Shown here piece after piece: positions 1 through 1,227 of a stretch of 64,000 bases of DNA (the stretch's first letter is position 1; each line of letters starts with the position of its first letter). The DNA is from an uncultured Armatimonadota bacterium (GTDB lineage: Bacteria > Armatimonadota > Fimbriimonadia > Fimbriimonadales > Fimbriimonadaceae), in the NCBI GenBank assembly GCA_903833215.1, contig CAILEM010000097.1:1-64000 (forward strand), given 5' to 3'. Below the pieces are notes generated by a model. It worked only from the letters and a program-made list of their open reading frames with translations, ran no database searches and was not told the DNA's origin. The translations under genes were made by a program, and so were the position numbers.

Positions 1-71
1 CGCTCGCCTTGCGAACCCAACCCACAAGTGTTGCGCGATCCGACTCCGACAGTTCGATAACCATATACTAA

Positions 72-734
72 AGACGGAATACAGAACTCAATCGTACCGA
101 CGACTTAAAGACTCAGAACACTAGATTTTATCAACAGGTACTCGGCCGGTGGCTAACGACTGATCCACTTTGGCCGGGAGCATTAGCCTATGAATACGGT
201 GCCTCCTCACCTGTACAGTTTATCGACGCCACGGGCCTTATTCATTGTATTTTCAGTCCCACCAACACACGAGAGAGGTGTGGAAGGCTGAAGTGCTACG
301 CCGATCCTGGGGATGTTTACCCGTGCACGGTTGCGGGCGGAGCAATTACTGTGCCATGCCAAGCTACCCCAGGTCAACAGATTCTCAATTGTGAAGCGTG
401 TAATAACGCACTTAGTCCTCCTTCTCCGCCAACCCTGGACGGTGGCAACGGGTATGCACCATCTGGCACATATCCACTCCGGCCGCCGCGCTGGAATGAT
501 AAGCCCGTTAGGCAAAGTGAAATACCTAGTGAGGGGCCATGCTTTGTGCCGATACCACTTCCAACACGCAACGCCGTTGGCATTCACGGTGGTAGAGGTA
601 ATTGCCATCACCAGACTCTTGGATGTATTAGGACTGGTGATGACTGCGCGACTTCACTTGGCGAGTTACTTGGCTATTGGAATCGTGGTGGTAGTGGTAC
701 TATAACCATCCTTCCGCCGCCGAATCGAAGATGA
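72..734 (+). pseudogene. Orphan RHS C-terminal tip with L,D-transpeptidase-like toxin domain (5'-truncated)
   Basis: The frame is open from 72 (after a TAA at 69-71) to the TGA at 734, about 220 codons, with no convincing start codon. Residues encoded from 123 (RFYQQVLGRWLTTDPLWPG, then YEYGASSPVQFIDATGL) match the end of the RHS repeat-associated core, which usually reads RFYDPxLGRWLTxDP...YxYxxxNPVxxxDPSGL. The roughly 160 residues after GL are the variable tip. Near the end, GIHGGRGN followed by TLGCIRT matches the His...[S/T]xGCxR catalytic signature of L,D-transpeptidase (YkuD) folds: His codon 585-587, Cys codon 624-626. RHS tips of this kind are polymorphic toxins, and one of this fold would attack peptidoglycan peptides. 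The rest of the RHS gene is absent upstream, so this is a displaced tip, as seen in rhs orphan cassettes. The RHS identity is well supported; the toxin activity is inferred. Confidence 0.72.
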
Positions 735-747
735 ACACGGTGGTCCT

Positions 748-1227
748 ATGATAAAGCCAATTGCGTATTCGGCTCTACTCCTGATGCATTGCGACTGCGC
801 CGCTACTGGTGGTCGTTGTGCCCCTTACCACAGTAAGGGAAAATCAAATGTCTTGAACGCAAAGACATTTGGGACTTTCATGTCCCCTGACAAGCAGTAT
901 TCTGCTACCCTAAGATCAGGTGAAGCGTCTGTTGATCTGGTCGTATCGCAACATGCCCCGAACGGCCGGCAGATCGTCTTCAGTGAGCGTTGTGTGACTG
1001 GAATCATCTGGGATCCATCTCAACGTCACCGACTAATATTTAGTGAGTCAGCAATTTATGGAGTTGGCAAGATCGCCGTTTGGAATGGCCGCTTCCAGAG
1101 AGTAATATGGAATAGAAATGTTCATATAGAAGCTCTTAGGTGGGACTTGAAGCGGCAGTTCTTATCATTTCACACATGCGATGAATTCAACAAGCATTGG
1201 TTGACTCGAACTATTCATTTCAGATAG
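748..1227 (+). CDS. Candidate immunity protein for the RHS tip (exported)
   Basis: 159 aa, beginning 14 nt after the toxin-tip stop codon, the usual place for a cognate immunity gene. The N-terminus (MIKPIAYSALLLM, then Cys and small residues) looks like a Sec signal peptide, possibly of a lipoprotein, though LLMHC is not a good lipobox. An envelope location fits a partner that guards against a peptidoglycan-acting toxin. The mature part has TolB/WD-like strand patterns (MSPDKQYSATL, then IIWDPSQRHRLIF, then LRWDLKRQFLSF), suggesting a fragment of beta-propeller. A GGTGG four bases before the ATG can serve as ribosome site. I do not recognise the family; the immunity role rests on position and the signal peptide. 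Confidence 0.6.
   Translation: MIKPIAYSALLLMHCDCAATGGRCAPYHSKGKSNVLNAKTFGTFMSPDKQYSATLRSGEASVDLVVSQHAPNGRQIVFSERCVTGIIWDPSQRHRLIFSESAIYGVGKIAVWNGRFQRVIWNRNVHIEALRWDLKRQFLSFHTCDEFNKHWLTRTIHFR

What the first reader, a model, noticed from the sequence alone, without database searches (positions are those of the whole stretch)
72..1227. Orphan RHS tip with L,D-transpeptidase-like toxin and exported candidate immunity gene
Seen: RHS core end (RFYQQVLGRWLTTDP, FIDATGL) with nothing of the RHS repeats upstream; the tip ends in GIHGG...TLGCIRT, the L,D-transpeptidase His/Cys signature. 14 nt later starts a signal-peptide protein of unknown family. Known: RHS tips are exchangeable toxins followed by immunity genes; transpeptidase-like effectors (e.g. 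Tlde1) attack peptidoglycan and are blocked by periplasmic immunity proteins. Inferred: this is a peptidoglycan-targeting RHS toxin/immunity cassette stored as an orphan. The immunity family appears unfamiliar.
Basis: partly seen in the sequence, partly recalled or inferred. Interest (0 to 1): 0.75.

Follow-up and report, generated by a model that had tools for sequence, protein, structure and literature searches.

The report
Cell-wall-attacking Rhs toxin tip, IS-interrupted
This is the last part of a bacterial weapon gene, a toxin tip predicted to damage rival bacteria's cell walls together with its probable antidote gene, and it looks like an isolated fragment only because a jumping gene (IS630 type) has landed in it and the genome assembly broke at that point.

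Summary
An Rhs core end (123-239) leads into a tip (240-731) with the GIHGG...TLGCIRT motif, followed 13 nt later by an ORF (748-1227). The toxin call holds: four tips from the same phylum align with it, one passes Pfam's YkuD cut-off, and the AlphaFold model's six best PDB matches are all L,D-transpeptidase-fold enzymes, including the antibacterial effector Tlde1a. The immunity call is now testable: the 748-1227 product belongs to an unnamed all-beta, propeller-like family, and the gene behind the nearest tip relative (bacterium HR15) carries the same domain (hhalign E 7e-7; controls far below).
The "orphan with nothing upstream" reading needs correcting. The window starts at a contig end, and bases 1-122 are the end of an IS630-family element inserted at CTAG inside the Rhs core. 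Contig C48 ends at the same CTAG with the opposite element end and carries the missing kind of core remnant, downstream of another tip cassette. So this is probably a displaced tip of a known type, cut by an IS and likely silent (no in-frame ATG/GTG/TTG before residue 39). Rhs LD-peptidase toxins and displaced tips were described before; the antidote family appears unnamed.

The parts
1..122 (-). End of an IS630-family insertion sequence; transposase N-terminus MVIELSESDRATLVGWVRKA... reads from 64 down to 1; terminal repeat GACTCAGAACA at about 110-120
   Evidence: 99-100% identical to five other contig ends, 71-72% to seven more; terminal motif at 27 contig ends; full transposase with same N-terminus in L089, Pfam DDE_3 E 2.3e-22
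121..124 (.). CTAG insertion site of the IS; native to the Rhs core codons (..R-A|R-F-Y..)
   Evidence: Intact junction with GCTAGGTTCTATCAACAG in C159 (L087/L004); CTAG at all 27 element ends; IS630 preference for TA in CTAG cited in PMC2170065
123..239 (+). 3' remnant of the Rhs-associated core (RFYQQVLGRWLTTDP...FIDATGL)
   Evidence: TIGR03696 E 4.8e-5, partial; own-genome Rhs cores 53-57% identical
240..734 (+). Tip: L,D-transpeptidase/carboxypeptidase-like toxin domain; candidate catalytic His 585-587, Cys 624-626, Arg 630-632; stop 732-734
   Evidence: Homologous tips L047, L048, L041, L040; YkuD in L041 over cut-off; model pLDDT 77.9, pTM 0.77; Foldseek top six all LD-transpeptidase superfamily
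748..1227 (+). Probable immunity (antidote) gene: 159 aa, weak N-terminal export signal, all-beta propeller-like domain
   Evidence: Homologue L051 43%; same domain in the gene after the HR15 tip, hhalign E 7e-7, Prob 91.9, controls; model pLDDT 77.5; no Pfam/NCBIfam match

Best explanation
Window 123-1227 is the 3' part of an Rhs tip cassette: the end of the Rhs core, a C-terminal toxin domain of the L,D-transpeptidase (YkuD) fold, and its antidote gene. When intact, the toxin would be freed from the Rhs core, delivered into the periplasm of a competitor, and use a His/Cys active site to cut or exchange the terminal D-amino acid of peptidoglycan stem peptides (LD-carboxypeptidase / D-amino-acid exchange, as Tlde1a does). 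The 748-1227 product, an exported propeller-like protein, would bind and neutralise it in the producer's periplasm. Before insertion the cassette was probably a displaced tip behind another tip cassette (contig C48). An IS630-family element then inserted at the CTAG in the conserved FYVRA|RFYQQ stretch, which removed the start and made the toxin copy most likely silent, while the antidote keeps its own start codon. Shown: the sequence anatomy, homologous tips, fold match, antidote-domain association and IS end. Inferred: enzymatic activity, periplasmic delivery, neutralisation, and that C48 is the other flank.
For: Tip family of five; nearest relative HR15 38% identical, E 5e-21 as a single comparison; YkuD 28.0 bits against cut-off 23.4 in L041, 23.1 in L047, 20.4 in L040. 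Invariant in all five: H117, G119, G121, T127, G129, C130, R132. Fold match: DpaA and Bd1075 at probability 1.00, Tlde1a 0.82-0.97, next match 0.03. Antidote domain shared with the gene behind the HR15 tip: score 49.5 against at most 24 in 40 shuffles and 25 in 35 real proteins. Next genes after two other tips have strongly hydrophobic N-termini (L040, L041). IS. Rhs LD-peptidase toxins with linked immunity genes described in PMC3482391; Tlde1a chemistry in PMC9638812.
Against: The window tip alone has no Pfam hit and no credible PDB sequence hit. The motif is shortened (9 residues between His and Thr, against 14-17 in Tlde1/LD-transpeptidases) and has Leu where the canonical SHGC has His. Foldseek E-values are only 0.01-0.1. 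Antidote relatives L051 and L052 are not next to an Rhs tip in the loci read. The HR15 neighbour gene shows no signal peptide. The C48-C97 link is inferred from end type, CTAG and reading frame, not from sequence spanning the element.
Confidence: 0.75

Rival explanations
1. The tip is an LD-transpeptidase-fold domain whose activity is not LD-carboxypeptidase/exchange but another peptidoglycan bond cleavage, such as a DpaA-like detachment of peptidoglycan-linked lipoprotein.
For: The best structural matches are DpaA and Bd1075, ahead of Tlde1a. The motif differs from the canonical one in spacing and second His.
Against: Differences in rank are small and TM-scores are about 0.5 for all. Armatimonadota lipoprotein-peptidoglycan linkage was not examined.
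Confidence: 0.2
2. The 748-1227 gene is not the antidote but an unrelated exported protein that happens to follow the tip.
For: Relatives L051 and L052 occur without an Rhs tip in the loci read. Tips L040, L041 and L048 are followed by genes of other families. Propeller-like folds are common.
Against: The same domain follows the nearest tip relative in HR15 with a profile score well outside controls, including two other antidote-position genes of this genome. Position directly after the toxin is the standard immunity position. Stand-alone homologues are also expected for orphan immunity genes.
Confidence: 0.22
3. The fragment is an active orphan toxin as it stands, expressed from the IS or an internal start.
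For: IS ends can supply promoters (general knowledge); an in-frame GTG exists at 351.
Against: No in-frame ATG/GTG/TTG lies between the stop at 69 and 351. Starting at 351 would drop the first 38 residues of the domain, which hold the first strands of the model.
Confidence: 0.07

Closest known systems
Tox-LD-peptidase tips of Rhs polymorphic toxins (Zhang et al. 2012, PMC3482391)
   Same: Rhs C-terminal tip, LD-peptidase fold, linked immunity gene
   Different: Antidote is not a recognised Imm family (no Pfam match); shortened H-T-x-G-C motif; the phylum here is not among those listed there
Tlde1a / Tldi1a of Salmonella (PMC9638812)
   Same: LD-transpeptidase fold used as an antibacterial effector with an immunity partner; structural match
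   Different: Stand-alone T6SS effector rather than an Rhs tip; motif spacing 14-17 against 9; no sequence-level match found
Bdellovibrio Bd1075 and E. coli DpaA
   Same: Best structural matches, same catalytic superfamily
   Different: Not Rhs tips; different biological roles
Displaced Rhs tips (Jackson et al. 2009, PMC2935791)
   Same: Core remnant plus tip repeated downstream, as on C48 and C159
   Different: Here the cassette is cut by an IS, and tip ORFs in this genome carry their own ribosome site and ATG

Membership tests
Rhs polymorphic toxin (tip) | Rhs-associated core end directly before the variable tip | tested here: met
   TIGR03696 partial match E 4.8e-5 (below the model's cut-off), own-genome core matches E down to 3.9e-9
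Rhs polymorphic toxin (tip) | Rhs repeats upstream in the same gene | tested here: not met
   IS630-family end and contig break at 1-124; probable missing part on C48 is itself only a short core remnant
Rhs polymorphic toxin (tip) | Immunity gene directly downstream | tested here: inconclusive
   ORF 13 nt downstream with a domain shared by the HR15 tip's neighbour; neutralisation untested
L,D-transpeptidase (YkuD) superfamily | Sequence profile match | tested here: inconclusive
   Window tip none; homologous tip L041 over cut-off, L047 and L040 just under
L,D-transpeptidase (YkuD) superfamily | Fold | tested here: met
   Six top Foldseek matches all of this superfamily, probability 0.82-1.00, but E only 0.01-0.1
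L,D-transpeptidase (YkuD) superfamily | Catalytic His, Cys and following Arg | tested here: met
   H117, C130, R132 invariant in five tips
L,D-transpeptidase (YkuD) superfamily | Canonical HXX14-17-(S/T)HGC spacing with second His | tested here: not met
   Spacing 9-10 and TxGC with Leu, Gly, Arg or Glu at x
L,D-transpeptidase (YkuD) superfamily | Enzyme activity on peptidoglycan | not testable with these tools
   Needs biochemistry
Tlde1 effector family | Sequence homology to Tlde1 | tested here: not met
   No Pfam family found for the window tip and no Tlde1 sequence hit in PDB with the tip or the A2 profile; only the fold resembles it
IS630 family | DDE transposase, inverted ends, insertion at TA within CTAG | tested here: met
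   L089 transposase DDE_3, terminal motif and CTAG at 27 ends
Imm16 / Imm57 (known partners of Tox-LD-peptidase) | Match to a Pfam immunity family | tested here: not met
   No Pfam or NCBIfam match for the window protein, nor a credible one for its homologue L051

The most novel reading that the evidence does not exclude
In this lineage Rhs is a two-piece system. The shell ORF stops at IWDGTDYLGEVQ and interchangeable tip ORFs (core end plus toxin), each with its own ribosome site and ATG, dock onto the shell in trans. Displaced tip cassettes would then be a live, selectable arsenal rather than silent leftovers, and the window cassette would be one member knocked out by an IS. Its antidote would be a new compact propeller-type immunity family.
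Probability: 0.15. Interest if true: 0.75.

Novelty: new member of a known kind. Interest (0 to 1): 0.37.

Why it matters
It extends Rhs-borne cell-wall toxins to a phylum for which no Rhs toxin paper was found in the library, points to an immunity family with no Pfam or NCBIfam entry, and shows how an insertion plus an assembly break can pass for an orphan toxin cassette. The shell/tip ORF split seen in this genome would, if functional, change the view that displaced tips are silent.

Tried and rejected
Sequence search of PDB with the window tip gave only chance matches, and the A2 profile gave a weak Csd6 hit, E 0.83. Plasmid collection: no relatives of tip or antidote. C104, another contig ending in the same IS end inside an Rhs gene, was considered as the missing 5' part and rejected: it carries the same (not the opposite) element end and stops at a different place in the core. 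BLASTP missed the antidote/HR15 relation; the two-sequence profile gave only Prob 7.3, and the five-sequence profile found it. The two Rhs flanks were not joined.

Full report
What is in the window. Frame 3 is open from the stop at 69-71 to the stop at 732-734 and reads RFYQQVLGRWLTTDPLWPGALAYEYGASSPVQFIDATGL followed by a 164-residue tip with GIHGGRGNCHHQTLGCIRT. The core end matches TIGR03696 over its last 40 positions at E 4.8e-5, under that model's cut-off, and Rhs cores elsewhere in the same genome at 53-57% identity. An ORF of 159 residues starts at 748, 13 nt after the stop.

Why nothing lies upstream. The window is G000:C97:1-64000, so it starts at a contig end. Bases 1-124 recur at 99-100% identity at the ends of five other contigs and at 71-72% at seven more; the terminal motif CTAGTGTTCTGAGTC occurs at 27 contig ends, always with CTAG, against none for the reversed control pattern. 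The ends fall into four types. The window type encodes MVIELSESDRATLVGWVRKASGEQRSA, and another encodes DAKPFKWTASAESIIDKVNR. A related genome holds one transposase with both these termini (L089), matching DDE_3 at 2.3e-22 with several HTH domains. I read this as an IS630-family element, a family cited as preferring TA within CTAG (Tenzen and Ohtsubo, listed in PMC2170065). The CTAG is native to the Rhs core: an uninterrupted copy reads FYVRARFYQQ over GCTAGGTTCTATCAACAG on C159.

The probable other flank. Of the six contig ends with the opposite transposase end, only C48 has an Rhs core reading into the element, and it stops at the same CTAG, after NWFYVRA, in the matching frame. On C48 that core remnant lies downstream of a complete tip cassette (core remnant plus a tip with an HEFMH motif, then a small ORF with a hydrophobic stretch). 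If C48 and C97 are the two sides of one insertion, the cassette was a displaced tip of the kind described by Jackson et al. (PMC2935791).

The toxin domain. Searches of the family and of 291 genomes of the phylum found four further tips, in two family members (one with two tips) and in HR15 of the same order. HR15's tip is 38% identical. Seventeen columns are invariant in all five, among them H117, C130 and R132. YkuD matches L041 above its cut-off (28.0 against 23.4) and L047 and L040 below it. AlphaFold with these five gave pLDDT 77.9 and pTM 0.77. The six best PDB matches are DpaA, Bd1075 and Tlde1a chains, probability 0.82-1.00, and the seventh has 0.03; E-values are modest (0.01-0.1). The motif is not canonical: 9-10 residues between His and Thr, and no second His, against HXX14-17-(S/T)HGC. 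I therefore call it LD-transpeptidase-like, and its chemistry is inferred.

The antidote. The 159-residue protein has no Pfam or NCBIfam match. Homologues: L051 in the genus (43%, E 3e-27), and L052, L053 and L055 more distantly. L051 and L052 lie without an Rhs tip in the loci read. The model is all-beta (pLDDT 77.5) and resembles parts of beta-propellers such as TolB and S9 peptidases. The five-sequence profile matches the gene immediately after the HR15 tip over 122 columns, Prob 91.9, E 7e-7 for a single comparison; shuffles reach a score of 24 and 35 other proteins 25, against 49.5, and three other antidote-position genes give nothing. Thus the two most similar tips share an antidote domain, while more distant tips (L040, L041, L048) have other next genes, two of which (L041, L048) are related to each other. 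The export signal is weak in the window protein, strong in L051 and in the genes after tips L040 and L041, and absent from the HR15 gene model.

State of the gene. Between the stop at 69 and GTG 351 no ATG, GTG or TTG lies in frame; a start at 351 would remove residues 1-38 of the domain. The toxin copy is therefore probably silent while the antidote keeps its own start. That is inference.

Verdict. Rhs tips with LD-peptidase domains and linked immunity genes were described in 2012 (PMC3482391). This is a new member of that kind with an unnamed antidote family, and the orphan appearance in the window is due to an IS and a contig end. A split between Rhs shell ORFs and tip ORFs elsewhere in this genome is listed under noticed in passing. 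The assignment of the host to the phylum Armatimonadota is my own reading, from general knowledge of HR15 as a member of that phylum; the taxonomy copy lists HR15 only as an unclassified bacterium.

Noticed in passing
L087:3820-3900 (+); L086 near 1951 and 440 (-); L092:2060-2110: Rhs shell ORFs in this genome stop after IWDGTDYLGEVQ (C159, C147) or VWDGSDYLQGRA (C28). Where read (C159, C28), a separate ATG ORF with the core end plus tip follows at once, preceded by a GGAGAGG-like ribosome site on C159; displaced copies on C48 and C159 keep the same stop and ATG. The ten tip matches all lie in short frames (184-358 aa). Could be two-piece Rhs.
   Followed up: partly
G000 contig ends (27 places, L011-L039): Two related IS630-family elements sit at 27 contig ends of this assembly, so IS copies account for many of its breaks.
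   Followed up: partly
L096:10793-12376 (C104 end): A second Rhs gene is also interrupted by the same IS end, at another place in the core.
   Followed up: no
L086:1136-1951 (-): Displaced Rhs tip with an HEFMH motif, metallopeptidase-like, with no Pfam match; followed by a small ORF with a hydrophobic stretch.
   Followed up: no
L049:3236-7075: Bacterium HR15 carries several Rhs core-tip copies in a row, the first with the LD-transpeptidase-like tip.
   Followed up: no
window:1595-1924 (+): Small hydrophobic ORF (TTG start) of unknown family between the antidote gene and glyS; no convincing relatives in the family.
   Followed up: partly
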